The translations under genes and the position numbers were made by a program. Source: Halobellus rufus (GTDB lineage Archaea; Halobacteriota; Halobacteria; Halobacteriales; Haloferacaceae). Taken from it: a stretch of 64,000 bases of DNA. Below the pieces are notes generated by a model, which did no database searches, was not told where the DNA came from, and saw nothing but the letters and a program-made list of their open reading frames with translations. Numbering within the stretch: the stretch's first letter is position 1; every line of letters starts with the position of its first letter. The stretch covers positions 62,001 through 126,000 of the forward strand of contig NZ_BBJO01000025.1 in the NCBI RefSeq assembly GCF_000739575.1. The letters run 5' to 3'. Positions 55,517 through 64,000 of this stretch are shown piece after piece.

Positions 55517-55927
55517 ATGAAGGGTAGCCGGGTACGAACCGCACACGTGCGCCGGAAGAACAAACTGCTCGTCACGACCGTCGGGATACTCGTCCTCCTG
55601 GCGACCCTCGGCGCGACGAGTATGAACGCCTCGGCCGCGTTCGTGTCGCCGACGAAGGTCTCCGAATCTGACGGAGCGTACCAGGGCGAGTGGGTCAACC
55701 TCGAAGGCGTCGTCACCGACCTCGAGGTCGACGGAGAGACGATCACCTTCGCGGTGACCGACGAGAACCACACCGTTCCGGTCGTGTACGAAGGGACCGT
55801 CCCCGACACCCTCCAAGACGGTCGCGTCGTCGTCGCCAAGGGGCAGTTCGAGGGCGACAGACTGGTCGCGAACAAGCTCTCGGTCCGTGCACACGAGGGC
55901 GAGGAACGGCCCGAGAGTACTCGATGA
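55517..55927 (+). CDS. ccmE: Cytochrome c maturation haem chaperone CcmE
   Basis: 136 residues: a basic N-terminus, one membrane anchor (LLVTTVGILVLLATLGATSM), then a beta-barrel OB-fold domain outside the cell (GEWVNLEGVVTDLEVDGETITFAVTD). In the C-terminal part AH126EGEE sits where CcmE's haem-binding histidine is expected, so this is the His-type, not the Cys variant known in some archaea. The usual Tyr next to it is missing. The start of ccmA overlaps its stop by four bases (ATGA). First gene of the ccmEAB group. Confidence 0.9.
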   Translation: MKGSRVRTAHVRRKNKLLVTTVGILVLLATLGATSMNASAAFVSPTKVSESDGAYQGEWVNLEGVVTDLEVDGETITFAVTDENHTVPVVYEGTVPDTLQDGRVVVAKGQFEGDRLVANKLSVRAHEGEERPESTR

Positions 55928-56691
55928 CGTCCAAGGGCGAGCGAGCGGAGGCGGCCTCGAACGCGCCGGCTATCGAGGTCGACCGCGTGACGAAGTCCTA
56001 CGGGCACTTCACCGCCGTCGACGACCTCTCGTTCGCCGTCGAACGCGGTTCGACGGTCGGGCTGTTCGGCCCGAACGGAGCGGGCAAGACGACGCTGCTT
56101 CGGATGATGGCCGGGCTCGCGCGACCGACCCGCGGAACGATCGCGGTCGACGGCGTAGAACTGGCCCCGGACGACTACACCACCTACCGGACGGTCGGCG
56201 TCGTCACTCACGAGACGATGTTGTACGACGAACTCACCGCCCGGGAGAACCTCCGCGTCCACGCGGATCTCCACGGCGTCGCAGACCCCGAAGCGCGGTG
56301 TGCGACGGTGCTCGAAACGGTCGGACTGTCTCACCGCGGGAGCGACCGGCCGGCGGCGTTCTCGCACGGCCTGCGAAAGCGGCTGTCGCTCGCCCGCGCG
56401 CTGCTCCACGACCCCGAGGTGCTGTTGCTCGACGAGCCCTACACCGGCCTCGATCAGCGCTCCGTCGCCGACCTCGAATCGATCCTCGACGGGTTCGGCG
56501 ATCGGACGGTCGTCCTGACGACCCACGACCTCGAACGCGGTGTCGACCGCTGCGACCGAGCGCTTGTCGTCGACCGCGGCCGGCTGGAGGCGGACCTGGC
56601 GCTCGACGACGAGACGGCGTTCACCGCGGAGTATCGCCGAACGATCGGCGTCGGTTCCGAGCCCGAACGATCGGGGGAGACGGCGCGATGA
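55924..56691 (+). CDS. ccmA: Cytochrome c maturation ABC ATPase CcmA
   Basis: 255-residue ATPase. Walker A GPNGAGKTT (49-57), a signature in modified form FSHGLRKRLSLA (instead of LSGGQ), Walker B LLLDEPYTGLD and the H-loop TTHDLERG. It is encoded between ccmE (4-base overlap) and ccmB (19 bases later). With CcmB, and probably CcmC/D, it drives release of holo-CcmE during haem delivery to apocytochrome. Confidence 0.92.
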   Translation: MTSKGERAEAASNAPAIEVDRVTKSYGHFTAVDDLSFAVERGSTVGLFGPNGAGKTTLLRMMAGLARPTRGTIAVDGVELAPDDYTTYRTVGVVTHETMLYDELTARENLRVHADLHGVADPEARCATVLETVGLSHRGSDRPAAFSHGLRKRLSLARALLHDPEVLLLDEPYTGLDQRSVADLESILDGFGDRTVVLTTHDLERGVDRCDRALVVDRGRLEADLALDDETAFTAEYRRTIGVGSEPERSGETAR

Positions 56692-56710
56692 CCGCCGTCG
56701 GGTCGGGGCG

Positions 56711-57385
56711 ATGAGCGGGTTTCTCCGAGCGGTCTACCGGGTGTTCAGGAAGGACCTCCGGATCGAACGGCGGACGAAGCAGGTGACGACGACCGTCGCC
56801 GTCTTCGCGCTGCTCGTCGTGCTCGCGTTCGCGTTCAGTTTCGTCCAGACGCTACAGCGGTCGGCGCTGCTCGGCCGCGGCGCGCTGTGGATCGCCTTCG
56901 TCTTCGCCGGGACGTTCGGCGTCACGAAGACGGTCGAACTCGAAGATCGAAACGGGGCGCTGGACGGCCTGCTGGTCGCCCCGGTCGACCGCTCCGCGAT
57001 CTATCTGGGGAAGGTACTCAGTACGACGGTGTTCGTATTCGCGGTGAGTCTCGTGACGCTGGGGTCGACCGCGGTCTTTCTCGGCTACAGCCCGTCGGTC
57101 TCGACGGCGGTCTCGATCGCGGCCGTGCTCTTGGTCAGCGCCGTCGGGTTCGCCGCCATCGGCGTCGTCGTCTCGATTCTGACGTTCCGGTCGGGACTGG
57201 ACGAACTCGCGCTGCCGGTCCTTCTCGTCCCGCTCGTCGTGCCGCTGCTGCTCGCCGGGGTCGAACTCACCGCGGCGCTCGAGAGCGGCGCGCCGCTCGG
57301 CGGTTGGCTCCGACTCCTCGGCCTCTACACCGGAATCGTGCTCCTCGCCGGCGTGGCGACGTTCGAGTACGTCGTCGAGACGTGA
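56711..57385 (+). CDS. ccmB: Haem exporter-type membrane protein CcmB
   Basis: 224-residue membrane protein with six predicted helices: RVFRKDLRIERRTKQVTTT as cytosolic start, ending VATFEYVVET. The segments FAGTFGVTKTVELEDRNGALDGLLVAP and KVLSTTVFVFAVSLVTLG match CcmB. It pairs with CcmA as the ABC membrane part. Start ATG 56711. The gene converges with the halocyanin gene 33 bases further on. Confidence 0.9.
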   Translation: MSGFLRAVYRVFRKDLRIERRTKQVTTTVAVFALLVVLAFAFSFVQTLQRSALLGRGALWIAFVFAGTFGVTKTVELEDRNGALDGLLVAPVDRSAIYLGKVLSTTVFVFAVSLVTLGSTAVFLGYSPSVSTAVSIAAVLLVSAVGFAAIGVVVSILTFRSGLDELALPVLLVPLVVPLLLAGVELTAALESGAPLGGWLRLLGLYTGIVLLAGVATFEYVVET

Positions 57386-57418
57386 GGCCGGTCCCGAGGC
57401 CACCAGGTCTGCCCGCGC

Positions 57419-58138
57419 TCACTCCGCGTCCGCCGGCGGTCCCGCGGCGTCGCCCTCCTGCAGCAGGAGGAAGATCCCGAAGAAGATCGGCGAGAGCAGT
57501 CCGAGCGCGAGAAGCGCGACGAACGTCGCGTTCTCGAAGGAGATCGGCGTCCCCGAGCCGCCGGATTCGTCGCCCGATCCGCCACCGGACTCGCCGCCCG
57601 ACCCGCCGCTTCCGCCCTCTCCGCCGGCTTCCAGAAGCGGCTGCTCGACCTGGCTGGAGTCGAGGCCGCCGCTGCCGCCGACGACGACGGCCCCGAGCAT
57701 ACCGAGCGACCGGTGCGGGTCGCAGTAGTACTTGTACGTCCCCTCGCTCTGGAAGGTGTGCTCGAACGTCTCGCCGGGCGCGCTGTAGAGGTCGCTCTCG
57801 AAGCTTCCGTCCTCGGCGACGACGTTGTGGCTGTTCCCCTCGCCGGTCCACTCCCAGACGACGGTCGTGCCGGGGTCGACCCGGATCGCCGCGGGGCCGA
57901 ACCCGTAGTACCCGCCGTTGGCCTCGGAGCCGACCGCGACGGTCACCTCCGATTGGCCGGTGTAGTCGTAAGTCCCCTCGTAGTTGGAGACGCCGTCGAA
58001 CCAGCCGCCGTAATCCGGTTCGGATTGGGCGGCCGCAGAGTCGCTGGCGAGGGCTATCGTCGCTGCCGCGCCGAGTCCGGTCGCGGTTCGGCGCAGAAAC
58101 GCGCGTCGGTCGGTCGAATCGTCGAGTTGCGCTGACAT
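57419..58138 (-). CDS. Halocyanin (blue copper protein) with Tat signal and C-terminal membrane anchor
   Basis: 239-residue exported blue copper protein. The N-terminus has RRAFLRR and a hydrophobic Tat signal. The plastocyanin-like domain keeps all type-1 copper ligands: H104, C139, H142, M147 (YYCDPHRSLGM). A Gly/Ser/Glu-rich linker and a C-terminal hydrophobic helix (FVALLALGLLSPIFFGIFLLL) tether it to the membrane. It is the last gene of the operon that starts with the diheme cytochrome, so electrons probably pass between the two. No lipobox is present; the anchor is the C-terminal helix. Confidence 0.93.
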   Translation of the reverse strand: MSAQLDDSTDRRAFLRRTATGLGAAATIALASDSAAAQSEPDYGGWFDGVSNYEGTYDYTGQSEVTVAVGSEANGGYYGFGPAAIRVDPGTTVVWEWTGEGNSHNVVAEDGSFESDLYSAPGETFEHTFQSEGTYKYYCDPHRSLGMLGAVVVGGSGGLDSSQVEQPLLEAGGEGGSGGSGGESGGGSGDESGGSGTPISFENATFVALLALGLLSPIFFGIFLLLQEGDAAGPPADAE

Positions 58139-58173
58139 TGTGTATCGGTCGTGAGTCGTCTGTGGGCTCGGTC

Positions 58174-58293
58174 TTACGCCTGTACGTCTTCGAGTTGTCG
58201 TTCGAGGCGGGCCATCCGGCGCTGGAGGTACGTCACGTATCCGAAGAACGCGACGAAGAGCGCGGAGTAGCCGGCCAGCAGTAGTGGTTCCAT
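58174..58293 (-). CDS. ccmD: CcmD-like small membrane protein (39 residues)
   Basis: 39 residues (MEPLLLAGYSALFVAFFGYV followed by a polar, Arg-rich helix). This is the expected size, one-helix topology and position for CcmD, the adaptor that stabilises CcmC-CcmE. It starts two bases after the ccmC stop and ends 35 bases before the halocyanin start. It is below the usual ORF size cut-off, so it is easily missed. Confidence 0.8.
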   Translation of the reverse strand: MEPLLLAGYSALFVAFFGYVTYLQRRMARLERQLEDVQA

Positions 58294-58295
58294 CG

Positions 58296-59081
58296 TTATC
58301 GCCTCCGTGAGAGCCGTGCTCTGCGAACCTTCTGTTCGAGTTCGTGGATGCGGATCCGGATGCCGACGAGGTACAGATAGAGGAACGTCGCCGCGATCAG
58401 CGTCACCACGAGCGTCAGCGGATCGATGTTCGCGCTGACGCCGCTGTTTCCGATCGTGGTCTCGTGGAACGTCGGCGTCCAGAGCCGCGTCGACGCGTAC
58501 GACAGGGGGACGGTCACGAACCCGACGACGCCGTAAACGGCCGCGTACCGGTCACCCGCCTGGGCGTCGGTCGCGGCGTACACGACGAGGTATCCGGCGT
58601 AGATGAACCAGACGATCAGGAACGTCACCAGCCTGACGTCGGTCCACTCCCACCAGGAGTTCCAGATGACGCGCCCCCACGCGCTGCCCAGCAGCAGCGT
58701 CAGCGTCGCGAACAGGAAGCCAAGTTCGCCGGAGCTGTGGGCCAGTCGGCTCCAGAACGGCCCCCGGTAGCGCAGGTACAGCGCGCTGCCGACGAACGTC
58801 GATCCGAGTGCCGCGGCCGCGACCCACGCGAGCGAGATGTGCCAGTACGCGAGCAGGTTCGCGCCGTGTTCGATCCCGTACATCGTGTCCGAAGCGACGC
58901 CGAAGATCAACACCATCGAGAGCAGTCCGAAGCCGAACGCCCCCCACGCGACGAACCGACTGCCCGTCACGCGGTGGAGCACCGCGGTCACCCTCGCGAG
59001 AATCCGGGCGAACCGAACGTCGTTGCTTCTGCTCCCGCGAGCGCGAGCGTCCCCGTCGTCAGTCGATGAGCTGCCGTTCAT
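58296..59081 (-). CDS. ccmC: Haem lyase-type protein CcmC
   Basis: 261-residue membrane protein with about six helices. The tryptophan-rich WWD domain (LLGSAWGRVIWNSWWEWTDVR) is outside the membrane and binds haem for transfer to CcmE. A conserved-type histidine follows helix 2 (LAYWHISLAW). The first ~25 residues are polar and variable. It starts four bases after the ccdA stop and is followed by ccmD. Confidence 0.93.
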   Translation of the reverse strand: MNGSSSTDDGDARARGSRSNDVRFARILARVTAVLHRVTGSRFVAWGAFGFGLLSMVLIFGVASDTMYGIEHGANLLAYWHISLAWVAAAALGSTFVGSALYLRYRGPFWSRLAHSSGELGFLFATLTLLLGSAWGRVIWNSWWEWTDVRLVTFLIVWFIYAGYLVVYAATDAQAGDRYAAVYGVVGFVTVPLSYASTRLWTPTFHETTIGNSGVSANIDPLTLVVTLIAATFLYLYLVGIRIRIHELEQKVRRARLSRRR

Positions 59082-59085
59082 ACTG

Positions 59086-59778
59086 TTAGATCCACGTCGT
59101 TACCGATGCGAGTGCAAGCTTGTCGAGCCCGAAGAGCACGGCGATTCCGAGCGCGACGAGCGCGTAGCCGGTCACCGTCCGGAACAGTTCGGGCGATCCC
59201 CCGCTCGTGACCGAGTCGAGCAGCCGACTGCTGCCGGCCTGGCCGAGGTAGGCGACGCCCAGGAGCGGGATCGAAAAGCCGGCCCCGTACGTCGCCAACA
59301 GCCGCGCGCTGCCGACGACGTCCGAGGTCGTCCCGACGTACGCCAAGACGCCGCCGAGGACGGGGCCGACGCAAGGGAGCCAGATGACGCCTAGAAGCAA
59401 CCCCACCGCGAACGCGTTTCCCAGCGGGTGGGCGTCCTCGTCGACGCGGCCGGTGAGCCGCGTCGCCCGGCCGGCGAGGCGAGAGGCGTACCGCGAGTAG
59501 ATCTCGTTGAGGTCGTCGTCGGCCATCACGGCCCCGAACGCCAACATCAGGATGGCGAATGGCGCGCGGACGGAATCGGGCGTCACGGAGCCGACCATCC
59601 CGGTCAAGACCCCGAGAGCCGTGAACGTCACCGTGCTCCCGACGACGATTGCGACCGGCCGAAGCCGGTGCCCGTTCGCGCCGACGACGAGGACGGGGAT
59701 CATCGGGAGACAGCACGGGGTCAGGATCGTCAAAACCCCCGCGAGAAACACGGTGGCGGCGGTCGGGTCGGTTATCAT
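59086..59778 (-). CDS. ccdA: CcdA/DsbD-type thiol-transfer membrane protein
   Basis: 230-residue membrane protein that passes electrons from cytosolic thiols across the membrane to keep apocytochrome CXXCH cysteines reduced. The paired cysteines are in LTPCCLPMIP (helix 1) and WLPCVGPVLGG (helix 4), the DsbD/CcdA arrangement. Six helices in a 3+3 repeat. It lies 24 bases after the diheme cytochrome stop and four bases before ccmC, so it is a member of the same operon. The extracellular partner is probably the thioredoxin encoded at 61.4 kb. Confidence 0.93.
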   Translation of the reverse strand: MITDPTAATVFLAGVLTILTPCCLPMIPVLVVGANGHRLRPVAIVVGSTVTFTALGVLTGMVGSVTPDSVRAPFAILMLAFGAVMADDDLNEIYSRYASRLAGRATRLTGRVDEDAHPLGNAFAVGLLLGVIWLPCVGPVLGGVLAYVGTTSDVVGSARLLATYGAGFSIPLLGVAYLGQAGSSRLLDSVTSGGSPELFRTVTGYALVALGIAVLFGLDKLALASVTTWI

Positions 59779-59802
59779 TCGATGCTGGTCGTTGTGGGTT
59801 CG

Positions 59803-61155
59803 TTAGCTCGCCGTCTGTCCGGACTGCTCTGCCGCCAAGGCGGTCGTGACCGCGTCCTGAGCGGTCACCGACGACTGGTTCGCGGCGTCGTCGCTCGTCG
59901 AGTTGTCGACGTTCTCGTAGGTCCGGATCCACGTCGTCTCCCAGGAGCCGTCGACGGACTCGTTCCGGAGCGGCTGGTCGTACCGCTCGACGTTGTCGGG
60001 GATCACGCTCTCGTTGATCTCCGAGTCGTCGATCGGGATGTCCGCGAGCATGAGCTTCTTCGTCATCGGGTTCATATCGTACCCGAGGCGCTGCTGCGTG
60101 CGGTTGTAGTAGACCGCCTCGTCGGGCGCGCCCGCGGCGGCCCAGTCCTTGGGCTGTCGCGGCAGGTGCGGCCGCTTGTGGGCGTTCATGAACCCGGCGA
60201 CGTCCTGGACGTCCTCCCAGTCGGAGAACGTGTGCGCCGCGCCGTACGGCATCGCCTCGCGGGTGAAGCCGGCGGACGTGTAGACGCGACCCATTCCGGC
60301 CCCGTCGTTGTACGAACCTTCACCCCAAAGCGGCGGGTACTGTCCCTCGGCGCCCTGTCCGTCTGCACCGTGACAGGACGCGCAGTTCTCGAGGTACAAC
60401 TCGGCCCCGCGGACCGGGTTGATCTCCGAGACGGGAACCTTCTCGTCACCCTCCGGCTTCTCGATGTGTCGCCAGTAGGGGACGGTCTCGCTCGGCGTGC
60501 CCTTGTTCAGCCAGACCATGTACGACTCCATCGCCTGGATCTCGCGGCTGTCGTAGGCGGGGACGCCCTCCTCGGAGCCCGGCGCGTTCATACTCCGGAG
60601 GAAGCACCCCATAATCCGCTGACGCATGTCCCGCATCCGCTGGGTGCGGCCGGTCCACTCGGGGTAGCCCGCCGCGGTCCCGACGAGCGGGATCATGTCG
60701 ATGTCCTGCCCGACCATTCCGGTCGTCGTGGGGAGGTCGCCTCCGCCGTGGCAGTTCGCACACGAGAGGTCGTTCCCGACGTGCTCGGGCATCTCGTTGG
60801 ACGTGTTCGCGAATATCGCGCGCCCCTCACGGATGAGCTCCGCGCGGTTCTCGTTCTCCGGGAGCGTCGAGTTGTTCATCTCCTTGGGGACGAAGTTGAC
60901 CTCCTCGCCCGCGGTCGCGTTCTTGTACTCGAACCCCTGCTCGCGCAGGTCTTCGCTGTACCACTTGCTGCCGTTCCAGGTGCCAGGGAGTTCGCGGACC
61001 TCGCCACCGCCGGCGCTGGCTGCCGGCGCGTCCCCCGGGCCGCCGAGGAACGCGACCGCGCCGTTGATGGCGAACACGACGACGATCGCCGCGAACACCG
61101 TCCCGAAGACGAGCAGGACGGGCTTGAGCAAGAGCGTCGAGTCGCCCTGACTCAT
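59803..61155 (-). CDS. Membrane-anchored diheme cytochrome c, TsdA-like
   Basis: 450 residues: an N-terminal membrane anchor (~9-38), then a two-haem extracellular part with C132-x2-C135-H136 and C258-x2-C261-H262. The first domain has RIMGC184FLRSMNAPG and ESYMVWLNKG. These match the thiosulfate dehydrogenase (TsdA) pattern GCFERSMNG, including the cysteine that ligates haem 1 there; His136-Cys184 spacing is 48 here and ~43 in TsdA. Met302 (AMPYG) is a candidate haem 2 ligand. The C-terminal ~90 residues (LADIPIDDSEINESVIPDN) are extra. First gene of an operon with ccdA, ccmC, ccmD and halocyanin. Start ATG 61155. Thiosulfate oxidation is inferred, not shown. Confidence 0.85.
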   Translation of the reverse strand: MSQGDSTLLLKPVLLVFGTVFAAIVVVFAINGAVAFLGGPGDAPAASAGGGEVRELPGTWNGSKWYSEDLREQGFEYKNATAGEEVNFVPKEMNNSTLPENENRAELIREGRAIFANTSNEMPEHVGNDLSCANCHGGGDLPTTTGMVGQDIDMIPLVGTAAGYPEWTGRTQRMRDMRQRIMGCFLRSMNAPGSEEGVPAYDSREIQAMESYMVWLNKGTPSETVPYWRHIEKPEGDEKVPVSEINPVRGAELYLENCASCHGADGQGAEGQYPPLWGEGSYNDGAGMGRVYTSAGFTREAMPYGAAHTFSDWEDVQDVAGFMNAHKRPHLPRQPKDWAAAGAPDEAVYYNRTQQRLGYDMNPMTKKLMLADIPIDDSEINESVIPDNVERYDQPLRNESVDGSWETTWIRTYENVDNSTSDDAANQSSVTAQDAVTTALAAEQSGQTAS

Positions 61156-61394
61156 GTATCTGCCCACCTGGCAGTTAGATAGTCTGTCATTTCTCGTATC
61201 CCTCTACGGAGTCGTGTTTGCGAATCGAAATAGACGGACAATAAAGTTTACCCTCGACACGACTGTGAAGGGTGAATCCGGAATTTCGATAGACAGATCT
61301 CGTAATGTCGTGAGCAGTAGATCCACGACTGCACTCGACCGTCGGGACGACGACGGTAGATTTTACTATCGCAGTCTAATAGCCGAGGACATCG
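61156..61394. promoter_or_regulatory. Divergent control region of the diheme cytochrome and CcmG/CcmF genes
   Basis: 239 bases without a gene, AT-richer than the surroundings. CTGCC-CACCT-GGCAG (61160-61174) is a short inverted repeat next to the cytochrome start, and a minus-strand ACTATCTAAC lies ~22-31 bases before that start. GTCGTG-N11-CACGAC and, overlapping it, GCAGT-N9-ACTGC lie near 61307-61335 and are possible operator sites. GATTTTACTATC lies ~25-35 bases before the CcmG-like start. Confidence 0.5.
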
Positions 61395-61958
61395 ATGAAC
61401 CCACGAAAGGCGATGACGATCGCCTTCTTCGCCGCACTGCTCGGGATCGGGTACGTTTCGATGAACGCGGCACCCGTACTCTCCGGGGAAGGGTACTCCT
61501 ACCACGGGGAGACGCGGTGGCAGACCGACTACGCCGACGCCGTCGAGACGGCCGCCGCCGAGGACGAACCGGTCGTGATCTACTTCTGGACGACCTGGTG
61601 TACCTACTGTGAGGACTACAACCAGAACCACTACAGCGACCCGGCGGTGCGATCGGAGCTCGATGACTTCACGAAGGTAGCGGTGAACTTAGACAGCGAC
61701 GCCGAGGCCGACGCGCGGCTGCAGCAGCGGTACAACGTCAACTACCCGCCGCAGCACGTCGTCGTGACGCCCGAGGGGGAGGTGCTCACGCGGATCCCCG
61801 GCTACGCCCCGCCCGAGGACTTCCTCGCGTACCTGGAGACGGCCGAGGAGCGCTACCAGTCCGGCGAGACGGCCGATGACGGGTCCTCGACAGCGGCCGC
61901 CGGACCGACGTCGACGCCCAGACCCGAGTCGGGAGCGACGACGGAGGCCGCACAGTGA
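61395..61958 (+). CDS. Thioredoxin-fold protein, CcmG/ResA-like
   Basis: 187-residue protein: an N-terminal membrane segment (MTIAFFAALLGIGYVSMNAA), then a thioredoxin domain with active site W68-C69-T-Y-C72 and cis-Pro segment YNVNYPPQHVVVTPEG. The C-terminal ~30 residues are a Ser/Thr/Gly/Glu-rich tail. It is likely to reduce apocytochrome disulfides outside the cell before haem attachment, using electrons from CcdA. Its stop overlaps the ccmF start by four bases (GTGA), so translation is coupled. Start ATG 61395. Confidence 0.88.
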   Translation: MNPRKAMTIAFFAALLGIGYVSMNAAPVLSGEGYSYHGETRWQTDYADAVETAAAEDEPVVIYFWTTWCTYCEDYNQNHYSDPAVRSELDDFTKVAVNLDSDAEADARLQQRYNVNYPPQHVVVTPEGEVLTRIPGYAPPEDFLAYLETAEERYQSGETADDGSSTAAAGPTSTPRPESGATTEAAQ

Positions 61959-64000
61959 ACCCCGGGACGGTCCTGCTGGCGCTGGCGTTTCTCGCTGGAC
62001 TGGCGAGCACGTCGCTCCTCACGCGGGCGTACCTCCTCGACGACGATCGGTACCTCTCGTACGTCCCGAAACTGACCGCGGCGACGGCGGTGCTCTTGGT
62101 CGGGGCGCTCTCGCATCTCACCTACCAGTTCGTGAGCCTCGACTACTCGAACGCCTACGTGTGGGAGAACACCGCCGCGTACCTCTCGGTGCTCTACCGT
62201 GTGACGGGCGTGTACGCGGCCAACGAGGGGTCGGTACTCCTGTGGGCGGCGATCGTCGCCGTCGTCGCGCTGACTGCCGGCGTGACGCGGGGGTTCCCGA
62301 CGCGGCGCGGAAAGCTCGTCCACGCGCTCACCGTCGGCGTCGTGACGTACTTCACGGCGATGCTGTTGCTGCAGAGCCCGTTCGCCTCGGTTCGGACCGC
62401 GTTCCCCAACGCGCCCCCGGGGTTCACGCCGACGAGCGGACAGGGACTGAACCCCCTCCTCGTCGATCCGTATATGGCGATCCACCCGCCGGTGATGTTC
62501 GTCTCCTACGCGCTGCTGACGATGCCGTTCGCGATCGGGGCCGTCCACTTCATCGCGCTGTTCCGCGGCGACGACGGTCTCTTCTCGGCGTGGGTCGGGA
62601 GCGTGACCCGCTGGCTCCGACTCGGATGGCTGTTTCTCACCGCCGCCGTCGCGCTCGGGGGCCTCTGGTCGTACACGGTGCTCGGCTGGGGCGGGATCTG
62701 GGCGTGGGACCCCGTCGAGACCGCCATCCTGATCCCGTGGCTGTTCCTGACCGCGACGCTGCACGCGGTCACGAACTACCGGCCCGGCGGTCGGTACCGG
62801 GTCCTCGCGCCCGCGATGACCGCCAGCGTGTTCGCGCTCGCGGTGTACACGACGTCGGTGGTCAGAAGCGGCGTCTTCCGGAGCATCCACTCGTTCGCCG
62901 ACGGCGGGATCGGGGCGTCGTTCCTCGTGCTGATGGGCGTGACGACCCTCCTCGGCGTCGTGCTCCCGTTCACCTACTGGCTCCTGACAGAGGAGGACGA
63001 GGTCGACGCGTCCGACTCCGAGCCGAGCGGCGAGGGGCGACTCGCGGGATGGGTCACCCGCTCGAATCTGCTTCACCTCGCCGTCCTCCTCTTCGGACTG
63101 CTCACGTTCGTTTCCCTGTGGGGGCTCTCGTTCCCGGTGCTCCGGAGCGCGATGACCGGCCTCGAAGTGTCCGTCGAATCGCGCTACTACAACCTGTGGA
63201 GCTACCCGCTCGTACTCGCTGCCTTGCTCCTTCTGGGGTTCTACATGGACTTCGATCGGGAGGGCCTCCGCCGGAGCCTCGTTGGAGTGGCGGTGTTCGG
63301 CCTCGCGACGCTCGTCGGTGCCGCCGTCGCGCCGTCGGAGACGTGGCGGCTGGCGTCGGTGCGCCCGGACGACGCCCTCGTCTATCAGGTGATCGGCAAC
63401 GCGAGCGCGCTTTCGGTGTTACCGCCGGTTGCGTACGCGATCCTCGGGACGGTCAAGCGGACGTGGGGGCGGATCGCCGCGACGTCCAGTCGCGACGCGC
63501 GACTGAAGGAGTCCGGGATCACGCTGATCCACGTCGGGGCGGCGCTGCTCGTGCTCTCGCTGCCGTTTATGTACCTCTTCGCCGGACAGGCGTCGGTGAT
63601 GGCGACCGGCGTCGCGGCCGGCGCGGTCGATACCTCCCAGCGCGACGTCGGGACGTCCGCCTACGACGTCCGGGTGCTCGGCTACGAGCGGACCGAGTTC
63701 CCGACAGACCCCGAACCGGAGACGTACGCGCTCTCCTCATCGCAGGTTCTCACCCGCGGACAGTCGCTGAACACGTCGGTGCAGACCGTCCACGGGACGG
63801 TGACCGCGATACGCGAGGGGCCGCAGGCGACGGTGGTGCAACTCGACGACTCGCAGGTGTGGATCGGCGTCGCGGGCAACGGGTCGGTGGGCCTCGAAAC
63901 CGGCCAAGAAGTCGTCGCGCGCGGGCAGGTGATGTGGGAGTTCGTCCCGACGGCCGACGCGATCGTCCTCGCCGGTCCCGAGACCGTCGGTCCCGCTGAC
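61955..64000 (+). CDS. ccmF: Cytochrome c haem lyase CcmF (cut by window edge)
   Basis: Frame open from GTG 61955 to the right edge: 682 residues without a stop. This is the haem lyase core of system I cytochrome c maturation. The WWD haem-binding domain lies around residues 240-257 (LGWGGIWAWDPVETAILIPW), with NEGSVLLWA before it and HPPVMFVSYALL as another conserved segment. About a dozen membrane helices are visible, with a soluble domain starting near residue 560. The C-terminus lies outside the window, so the partner CcmH/CcmI cannot be judged. Confidence 0.95.
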   Translation, partial: MNPGTVLLALAFLAGLASTSLLTRAYLLDDDRYLSYVPKLTAATAVLLVGALSHLTYQFVSLDYSNAYVWENTAAYLSVLYRVTGVYAANEGSVLLWAAIVAVVALTAGVTRGFPTRRGKLVHALTVGVVTYFTAMLLLQSPFASVRTAFPNAPPGFTPTSGQGLNPLLVDPYMAIHPPVMFVSYALLTMPFAIGAVHFIALFRGDDGLFSAWVGSVTRWLRLGWLFLTAAVALGGLWSYTVLGWGGIWAWDPVETAILIPWLFLTATLHAVTNYRPGGRYRVLAPAMTASVFALAVYTTSVVRSGVFRSIHSFADGGIGASFLVLMGVTTLLGVVLPFTYWLLTEEDEVDASDSEPSGEGRLAGWVTRSNLLHLAVLLFGLLTFVSLWGLSFPVLRSAMTGLEVSVESRYYNLWSYPLVLAALLLLGFYMDFDREGLRRSLVGVAVFGLATLVGAAVAPSETWRLASVRPDDALVYQVIGNASALSVLPPVAYAILGTVKRTWGRIAATSSRDARLKESGITLIHVGAALLVLSLPFMYLFAGQASVMATGVAAGAVDTSQRDVGTSAYDVRVLGYERTEFPTDPEPETYALSSSQVLTRGQSLNTSVQTVHGTVTAIREGPQATVVQLDDSQVWIGVAGNGSVGLETGQEVVARGQVMWEFVPTADAIVLAGPETVGPAD

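What the first reader, a model, noticed from the sequence alone, without database searches (positions are those of the whole stretch)
55517..64000. Self-contained cytochrome c maturation and TsdA-like electron-transfer locus in a haloarchaeon
A membrane-anchored diheme c-type cytochrome with a TsdA-like core, ccdA, ccmC, ccmD and a membrane-anchored halocyanin form one minus-strand operon (gaps of 24, 4, 2 and 35 bases). ccmE-A-B and a CcmG-like thioredoxin plus ccmF flank it on the plus strand. The machinery that makes cytochrome c is thus packed around one cytochrome and one blue copper protein. I infer a redox module in which the diheme protein oxidises a small sulfur compound outside the cell and halocyanin carries the electrons on. 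Haloarchaea are generally poor in c-type cytochromes, so this would be a new pathway variant if confirmed.
Basis: partly seen in the sequence, partly recalled or inferred. Interest (0 to 1): 0.9.

Follow-up and report, generated by a model that had tools for sequence, protein, structure and literature searches.

The report
Haloarchaeal thiosulfate enzyme with private maturation
A salt-loving archaeon carries, in one gene block, a haem enzyme that very probably joins two thiosulfate molecules into tetrathionate, together with its own private machinery for attaching the haem; the block itself is known, but one of its parts breaks a published rule for archaea and another has no known function.

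Summary
The dihaem protein is TsdA-type by sequence (solved thiosulfate dehydrogenase, E=1e-38; catalytic Cys, both substrate Arg and the haem-2 Met invariant in 19 haloarchaeal rows). The cassette also lies in "Natronorubrum thiooxidans" HArc, a name tied in print to thiosulfate-to-tetrathionate oxidation. The block is not new: Kletzin et al. 2015 reported TDH homologues in operon-like order with ccm genes in five haloarchaea. Halocyanin is optional (8 of 29 loci).

New here, from 391 sampled Halobacteria genomes: (1) a ~405-aa protein ("P405", apparently secreted and membrane-anchored, just beyond the window) starts at the ccmF stop and was found in exactly the 27 genomes with TsdA, 29 copies for 29, and in none of the 14 ccm genomes without TsdA. 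(2) CcmF-sized frames equal client loci (44 for 44); one genome has one CcmC and one CcmE but two CcmF, one beside each client. (3) CcmE has neither CxxxY nor HxxxY (27 of 27 in 25 genomes: His present, no Cys, no Tyr at +4), against the published statement that archaeal CcmE is universally CxxxY. Roles are inferred; nothing was tested at the bench.

The parts
59803..61155 (-). tsdA: membrane-anchored dihaem thiosulfate dehydrogenase (open frame starts at GTG 61167; likely start ATG 61155)
   Evidence: phmmer to 4v2k E=1.1e-38; invariant C136xxC139H140, C188, C262xxC265H266, M306 in 19 haloarchaeal rows (numbering from the GTG at 61167)
59086..59778 (-). ccdA: thiol-reductant membrane transporter
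   Evidence: DsbD_TM 1.1e-18
58296..59081 (-). ccmC: haem handling / loading of CcmE
   Evidence: Cytochrom_C_asm 2.8e-20, TIGR01191 5.1e-23, below its cut-off
58174..58293 (-). ccmD-like, 39 aa, one membrane helix
   Evidence: place and size; orthologue annotated 'CcmD family protein' in a Halobacterium noricense plasmid record; window copy itself matches no Pfam profile
57419..58138 (-). halocyanin with Tat-like signal and C-terminal helix (read by eye); probable electron acceptor, optional in relatives
   Evidence: TIGR03102 4.8e-42, over cut-off; beside tsdA in 8 of 29 loci
55517..55927 (+). ccmE: haem chaperone with His-only motif (VRAH, no Cys, no Tyr at +4)
   Evidence: PF03100 1e-15; motif survey 27 of 27
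55924..56691 (+). ccmA: ABC ATPase
   Evidence: ABC_tran 3.9e-33; CcmA model 128.8 of 131.6 bits
56711..57385 (+). ccmB: ABC permease
   Evidence: CcmB 3.7e-22
61395..61958 (+). CcmG-like thioredoxin (WCTYC motif), overlaps ccmF by 4 bases
   Evidence: Thioredoxin_2 1.1e-14; gap -4
61955..64000 (+). ccmF: haem lyase; runs on past the window to L003:10406 (window equivalent 64405)
   Evidence: Cytochrom_C_asm 1.8e-25, CcmF_C 3.6e-7; full ORF 816 aa in L003. P405, the ~405-aa TsdA-linked protein, follows at L003:10403-11620 (+) (window equivalent 64402-65619), 4-base overlap

Best explanation
The block is a self-sufficient thiosulfate dehydrogenase (tetrathionate-forming) cassette. TsdA sits outside the cell on an N-terminal membrane anchor (a lipobox in other lineages). 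Haem is loaded on CcmE by CcmABC(D); CcdA and the CcmG-like thioredoxin keep the two CxxCH motifs of apo-TsdA reduced; CcmF attaches both haems, helped by P405, which I infer to be a TsdA-specific apocytochrome chaperone or synthetase subunit standing where bacteria use CcmH/CcmI. Holo-TsdA joins two thiosulfates at Cys188/haem 1, passes two electrons through haem 2 (predicted His/Met) and, in this lineage, to the halocyanin encoded in the same gene row and so to a terminal oxidase. Shown by sequence: gene identities, conserved catalytic residues, co-inheritance, one CcmF per client locus. Inferred: activity, direction, electron route, co-transcription, role of P405.
For: TsdA: nearest solved structures are thiosulfate dehydrogenases (4v2k, 4wq series) and 5lo9 at about 1e-38, next best 2e-6, none of the 25 entries up to 0.01 named SoxA; about 1e-44 with the family profile. 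Catalytic Cys96 equivalent (C188), Arg82/92 equivalents (R174, R184) and Met209 equivalent (M306) invariant in 19 sequences (roles in PMC6879331, passages). Phenotype link: 'Natronorubrum thiooxidans' HArc, whose name PMC8530250 (passages) cites to Sorokin 2005, 'Oxidation of thiosulfate to tetrathionate by an haloarchaeon...', carries the full cassette (L085); in that genome (G330) there is no DoxA, SoxB or MauG match, and TsdA is its only PF00034 and PF13442 protein. Sulfur genes (DsrE, TusA, MBL fold, YeeE-type) adjoin the cassette in Halorussus halophilus and in a genome of the Halococcus genus. Private maturation: all 27 TsdA genomes have ccm; 44 CcmF-sized frames for 44 client loci. P405 in exactly the 27 TsdA genomes of 391, overlapping or within 31 bases of the ccmF stop in 28 of 28 loci that hold both.
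Against: No activity, haem staining or expression data. TsdA enzymes work both ways; the residue before the haem-2 Met is Ala or Ser in 29 of 29, not Lys as in A. vinosum, nearer to C. jejuni TsdA (Asn), so tetrathionate reduction is possible. The sulfur-gene neighbours are found at 2 of 29 loci only, and not in this window. In one genome (G021) P405 sits with tsdA on a contig without ccmF, and its CcmF groups beside the MauG type, so P405 may serve TsdA itself and not CcmF. eLife 2022 (PMC9084895, passages) argues that a CcmH/I replacement in archaea is unlikely. DoxD was not searched; PMC7393216 (passages) reports DoxD without DoxA in four Halobacteria MAGs. I did not read Sorokin 2005 itself (not held).
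Confidence: 0.8

Rival explanations
1. Same enzyme, opposite direction: a tetrathionate reductase used in anaerobic respiration, taking electrons from the quinone pool or halocyanin.
For: TsdA enzymes are bidirectional, and C. jejuni TsdA, which like this protein lacks the Lys next to the haem-2 Met, catalyses both directions (PMC6879331, passages; A305-M306). That C. jejuni uses it as a reductase is recalled.
Against: The one haloarchaeon with a reported phenotype and this cassette is reported to oxidise thiosulfate; a halocyanin beside tsdA in 8 of 29 loci fits an electron exit toward an oxidase.
Confidence: 0.15
2. A SoxA-like cytochrome that conjugates thiosulfate to a carrier protein, or a dihaem electron carrier without sulfur chemistry.
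For: NCBIfam SoxA model scores it weakly (6.5e-11, 41.9 bits against a cut-off of 110); Kletzin 2015 notes structural likeness of the TDH homologues to SoxA.
Against: Thiosulfate dehydrogenase structures match at 1e-38 to 1e-44 and no entry named SoxA appears; the SoxB model gives one sub-cut-off partial match in G000 (66.8 of 550 bits) and none in N. thiooxidans; SoxYZ was not searched; Cys, Arg and Met pattern is that of TsdA.
Confidence: 0.04
3. P405 is not a maturation factor but a structural or cell-surface partner of mature TsdA (docking to the S-layer or to an electron acceptor), encoded after ccmF only by operon habit.
For: In G021 P405 stays with tsdA and not with ccmF (L064, L065); it holds a beta-sandwich-type domain (CarboxypepD_reg 2.2e-7, just below cut-off) and no Cys in its last 360 residues in 29 of 29, unlike CcmH; no TPR match, unlike CcmI.
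Against: In 28 of 28 loci with both genes P405 overlaps or starts within 31 bases of the ccmF stop, also where trx-ccmF-P405 has moved as a block (L080, L082); halocyanin, one plausible docking partner, is absent from 20 of 29 loci.
Confidence: 0.4

Closest known systems
Thiosulfate dehydrogenase TsdA (Allochromatium vinosum, Campylobacter jejuni)
   Same: Two CxxCH haems, Cys and two Arg at haem 1, haem-2 Met; bacterial TsdA-type proteins in plasmid records are 33-40% identical over the core
   Different: Membrane or lipid anchor, conserved N- and C-terminal extensions, Ala/Ser before the Met; own ccm set beside it; P405 in all 27 genomes
Haloarchaeal TDH homologues, cluster 28 of Kletzin et al. 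2015
   Different: Nothing for the enzyme; P405, CcmE motif and one-client CcmF are not mentioned in the passages seen
Archaeal streamlined Ccm System I (Methanosarcina acetivorans, Gupta et al. 2022, PMC9084895)
   Same: CcmABCEF core; no CcmH or CcmI seen in the cassette
   Different: CcmE has His and neither Cys nor Tyr at +4; CcmD-like, CcmG-like and CcdA genes present; unsplit CcmF; P405
Dedicated haem lyases (NrfEFG for NrfA; recalled)
   Same: A CcmF relative kept for one client
   Different: There the client motif is unusual (CxxCK, recalled); here both motifs are ordinary CxxCH
TsdC of Wolinella succinogenes (only its title seen, in a reference list)
   Same: A TsdA-linked accessory membrane protein
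   Different: By its title TsdC is a lipoprotein that raises tetrathionate reductase activity of TsdA; homology with P405 was not tested

Membership tests
TsdA thiosulfate dehydrogenase | Two class-I CxxCH haem sites | tested here: met
   C136xxC139H140 and C262xxC265H266 invariant in 19 of 19
TsdA thiosulfate dehydrogenase | Catalytic Cys ligand of haem 1 between the haem sites, with two nearby Arg | tested here: met
   C188, R174, R184 invariant and aligned with Cys96, Arg82, Arg92 of the solved enzyme (roles; the mature numbering of the Arg is my conversion)
TsdA thiosulfate dehydrogenase | Met distal ligand of haem 2 | tested here: met
   M306 invariant
TsdA thiosulfate dehydrogenase | Groups with TsdA and not with SoxA | tested here: met
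   Profile search: TsdA 1e-44, no SoxA-named entry up to 1e-5. A tree with 8 bacterial TsdA-type rows was built, but no SoxA row was in it, so this rests on scores, not on a tree
TsdA thiosulfate dehydrogenase | Thiosulfate/tetrathionate turnover | not testable with these tools
   Only the phenotype tied to N. thiooxidans, through a citing paper
SoxA | Match to the SoxA equivalog and a sox gene context | tested here: not met
   41.9 of 110 bits; SoxB not over cut-off in G000, no match in G330; SoxXYZ not searched
Ccm System I | CcmA, B, C, E, F and thiol-reduction genes | tested here: met
Ccm System I | CcmE haem motif HxxxY (bacteria) or CxxxY (archaea) | tested here: not met
   27 of 27 CcmE in 25 ccm genomes: His, no Cys, no Tyr at +4; the His lies one column after the His of the solved bacterial CcmE 8ce8
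Ccm System I | CcmH (and CcmI) | tested here: inconclusive
   No match among the cassette proteins; genome-wide search for CcmH not run
CcmD | Match to CcmD profiles | tested here: inconclusive
   Window copy no match; of three relatives one hits CcmD_alt at 0.012 and one CcmD at 0.041 (with better chance hits to other families), none over cut-off

The most novel reading that the evidence does not exclude
Haloarchaea run a third form of Ccm System I: CcmE holds haem through a lone conserved His without the Tyr (or Cys) described so far, and the haem-attaching step is done by client-matched synthetases, CcmF plus P405 for TsdA and CcmF alone for the MauG-type peroxidase, so that each cytochrome travels with its own lyase and P405 is the archaeal stand-in for CcmH/CcmI.
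Probability: 0.35. Interest if true: 0.75.

Novelty: new variant of a known kind. Interest (0 to 1): 0.56.

Why it matters
It gives a gene candidate for the reported oxidation of thiosulfate to tetrathionate by a haloarchaeon, and it turns a vague problem (how archaea attach haem without CcmH) into a testable one: a protein of unknown function that follows ccmF and is inherited only with one client. The CcmE result contradicts a published universal (archaeal CcmE 'universally' CxxxY, PMC9084895) and questions the need for the Tyr that is held to ligate haem when holo-CcmE is released.

Tried and rejected
Structure prediction for P405 and TsdA: tool switched off, so no fold search. Other conserved neighbours: clustering of unassigned ORFs in 36 TsdA loci gave no family in more than 6 of them, mostly within one lineage. 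SoxA, DoxA and SoxB as alternatives: tested, not supported; DoxD and SoxYZ not searched. P405 against NCBIfam and PDB: no useful match (best a NOMO2 domain, 5.5e-5). Halophilic bacterial relatives (L089 Salinivenus iranica, Rhodothermota; L091 a Bacteroidetes MAG): nested among haloarchaea in the tree, but one haloarchaeal clade is not rejected (p-AU 0.218), so I claim no direction of transfer. CcmD as a novelty: dropped, since mBio 2025 (PMC12077264, passages) names Halobacteria in the legend of a CcmC and CcmD alignment. P405 was not found in two bacterial genomes with close TsdA, a search without a positive control of its own. PMC12175516 (passages) was of no use for CcmE.

Limits: the 'class' searches hold 391 genomes drawn evenly from a larger group; only the best few candidates per genome were scored (at most 4 in the protein searches), so weak distant relatives could be missed. 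The CcmE motif was read in 25 of the 41 ccm genomes (genome budget); one search reads 53 rows with the same result, but its genomes repeat. Neighbourhoods (L003, L034-L073) cover all 27 TsdA genomes, G347, and 9 of the 14 MauG genomes (L052, L066-L073). In the TsdA tree I used 28 haloarchaeal rows of those held; the A. vinosum plasmid copy L095 was left out because it matched in two pieces. That tree has long-branch warnings among the bacterial rows. The CcmF tree is a quick one on 34 chosen rows. The organism names behind PDB entries 4v2k, 5lo9 and 8ce8 are recalled or taken from PMC6879331, not given by the calls. Signal peptides, lipobox and membrane helices were read by eye.


Full report
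What is there. The unit is longer than the window: ccmF ends at L003:10406 and is followed, with a 4-base overlap, by a 405-aa protein with an apparent signal sequence and C-terminal helix (here P405), then PCNA and a sulfite-oxidase-like gene at the contig end.

The cytochrome. phmmer against solved structures finds thiosulfate dehydrogenases (4v2k, 4wq series) and 5lo9 at about 1e-38, everything else at 2e-6 or worse; the profile of 19 haloarchaeal relatives raises this to about 1e-44, with no SoxA-named entry up to 1e-5. Over those 19 rows both CxxCH motifs, Cys188, Arg174, Arg184 and Met306 are invariant. In A. vinosum the matching Cys is required for activity, the two Arg are important, and the Met ligates haem 2 in the reduced crystal (PMC6879331, passages). 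The residue before that Met is Ala or Ser in 29 of 29 copies, not Lys, so haem 2 should be plain His/Met. Two anchor types occur: an N-terminal helix (as here) or a lipobox LAGC. In the tree the haloarchaeal rows and two halophilic bacterial rows are split from eight other bacterial TsdA-type rows by a 100/100 branch (the bacterial rows have long branches).

Distribution. The same 391 Halobacteria-class genomes were searched five times. TsdA: 27 (29 copies). Cytochrom_C_asm, i.e. CcmF and CcmC: 41 (87 matches, 44 of them in CcmF-sized frames). CCP_MauG over cut-off: 14, with one further match below cut-off in G348. Cytochrom_C PF00034: 27, the same genomes, all 32 matches in TsdA frames. P405: 27, the same genomes (29 copies). 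Every TsdA and every MauG genome has ccm; one genome (G037) has both clients; the only ccm genome with neither (G347) has an eight-CxxCH and a four-CxxCH frame beside its ccm genes. So each of the 41 ccm genomes has a cytochrome client near a CcmF, except that in G021 tsdA and ccmF lie on different contigs and their distance is unknown.

One CcmF per client. 44 CcmF face 29 TsdA + 14 MauG + 1 multihaem locus. MauG and CcmF matches lie within about 2.2 kb in 14 of 14 (coordinates). G037 has one CcmC and one CcmE but two CcmF, one beside TsdA and one beside MauG; its TsdA locus keeps ccdA, trx, ccmF and P405 but no ccmABCDE. In the CcmF tree of 34 rows its two CcmF fall with TsdA-locus and MauG-locus CcmF respectively; the 9 MauG-locus rows are one group (SH-aLRT 100), while the CcmF of G021 (a TsdA genome) sits beside that group, against a clean rule (quick tree). 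In G099 CcmC and CcmE lie more than 1 Mb from MauG and its CcmF. Haem delivery can thus be shared or distant, but CcmF stays with its client.

P405. It was found in exactly the 27 TsdA genomes (Fisher p 3e-42 over genomes; 3e-6 over ccm-bearing genera, with two mixed genera counted on both sides; relatedness of genomes makes the first figure too small). In the two mixed genera it follows TsdA. It overlaps or starts within 31 bases of the ccmF stop in 28 of 28 loci that hold both genes (starts are those of the longest frame, and in L035 the frame runs far upstream, so the start is not fixed), and in L080 and L082 trx-ccmF-P405 has moved as a block. At MauG loci ccmF is followed at once by convergent ccmB (0-103 bases in 7 of 9 loci seen). 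P405 has a beta-sandwich-type domain (CarboxypepD_reg 2.2e-7, 31.6 of 32.3 bits), no NCBIfam family over cut-off, no Cys in its last 360 residues in 29 of 29, and among 17 named relatives 31 invariant positions, including His88 and His202. My reading is a TsdA-specific partner of CcmF, a stand-in for CcmH/CcmI; the rival is a partner of mature TsdA, which G021 (P405 beside tsdA, away from ccmF) favours.

CcmE. PF03100 finds one CcmE per genome, two in G320 and G326, which have two cassettes. Three MAFFT settings put the His one column after the haem-binding His of 8ce8. PMC9084895 (passages and section 11) states that archaeal CcmE universally has CxxxY and that CcmD, CcmH and CcmI are absent; PMC3884852 and PMC12077264 (passages) give the Tyr the role of haem-iron ligand on release. 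The haloarchaeal proteins fit neither form.

Function and direction. PMC8530250 (passages) cites that name to Sorokin et al. [quoted passage not shown] G330 has no DoxA, SoxB or MauG match, and TsdA is its only PF00034 and PF13442 protein. In Halorussus halophilus the cassette is on a plasmid, and DsrE, TusA, MBL-fold and YeeE-type thiosulfate transporter genes lie 3-6 kb beyond its halocyanin gene; among the fetched loci the same genes recur only in L041 (a genome of the Halococcus genus) and in part in L077 (Halococcus morrhuae), and none is in this window. Oxidation is the likelier direction; reduction is not excluded. Halocyanin is beside tsdA on the same strand in 8 of 29 loci (Halobellus, Halobacterium noricense, Halorussus halophilus; a ninth, in G037, lies 5.9 kb off on the other strand), and G000 has ten halocyanin-like matches in all, so it is a plausible but replaceable acceptor.

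What is known. Kletzin et al. 2015 (PMC4429474, passages) already list haloarchaeal thiosulfate dehydrogenase homologues with ccm genes in operon-like order in five species. The plasmid records name the genes, P405 as 'carboxypeptidase(-like) regulatory'. I found no print mention of P405, of one-client CcmF in haloarchaea or of the His-only CcmE in searches and the passages read; subscription papers, Allen et al. 2006 and Sorokin et al. 2005 among them, were not readable, so Allen 2006 may already show the haloarchaeal CcmE.

Noticed in passing
L053:2329-4116 (+) and L053:6646-7533 (+), genome G347: A haloarchaeon with an eight-CxxCH and a four-CxxCH frame beside its ccm genes, though Kletzin 2015 states that haloarchaea hold no multihaem cytochromes as far as known; its CcmE ends three residues into the motif (HEQ) and its CcmF is very divergent.
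   Followed up: partly
L052, L066-L071, L073: 8 of 9 MauG-type ccm loci seen hold a sulfite-oxidase-like (Oxidored_molyb) gene, suggesting a molybdenum enzyme plus dihaem cytochrome module.
   Followed up: partly
L003:12454-13554 (-), just past the window: A sulfite-oxidase-like protein (Oxidored_molyb 1.9e-39; SorA model 1.3e-31, far below cut-off) near the cassette in several but not all Halobellus.
   Followed up: partly
L089:8986-10137 and L091:8899-10050: Salinivenus iranica (Rhodothermota) and a Bacteroidetes MAG carry a TsdA 56-59% identical to the haloarchaeal one, with no ccm genes or P405 seen beside it: a transfer between extreme halophiles of two domains, direction not settled.
   Followed up: partly
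L038 and L039 (Halobacterium noricense plasmid NZ_CP089469.1): Two copies of the cassette (TsdA nearly identical) about 166 kb apart on one 369-kb plasmid; Halorussus halophilus also has it on a plasmid.
   Followed up: no
L104:16179-19369: DsrE, TusA, MBL-fold and YeeE/YedE-type genes near the cassette, a possible haloarchaeal thiosulfate uptake and sulfane-sulfur unit.
   Followed up: no
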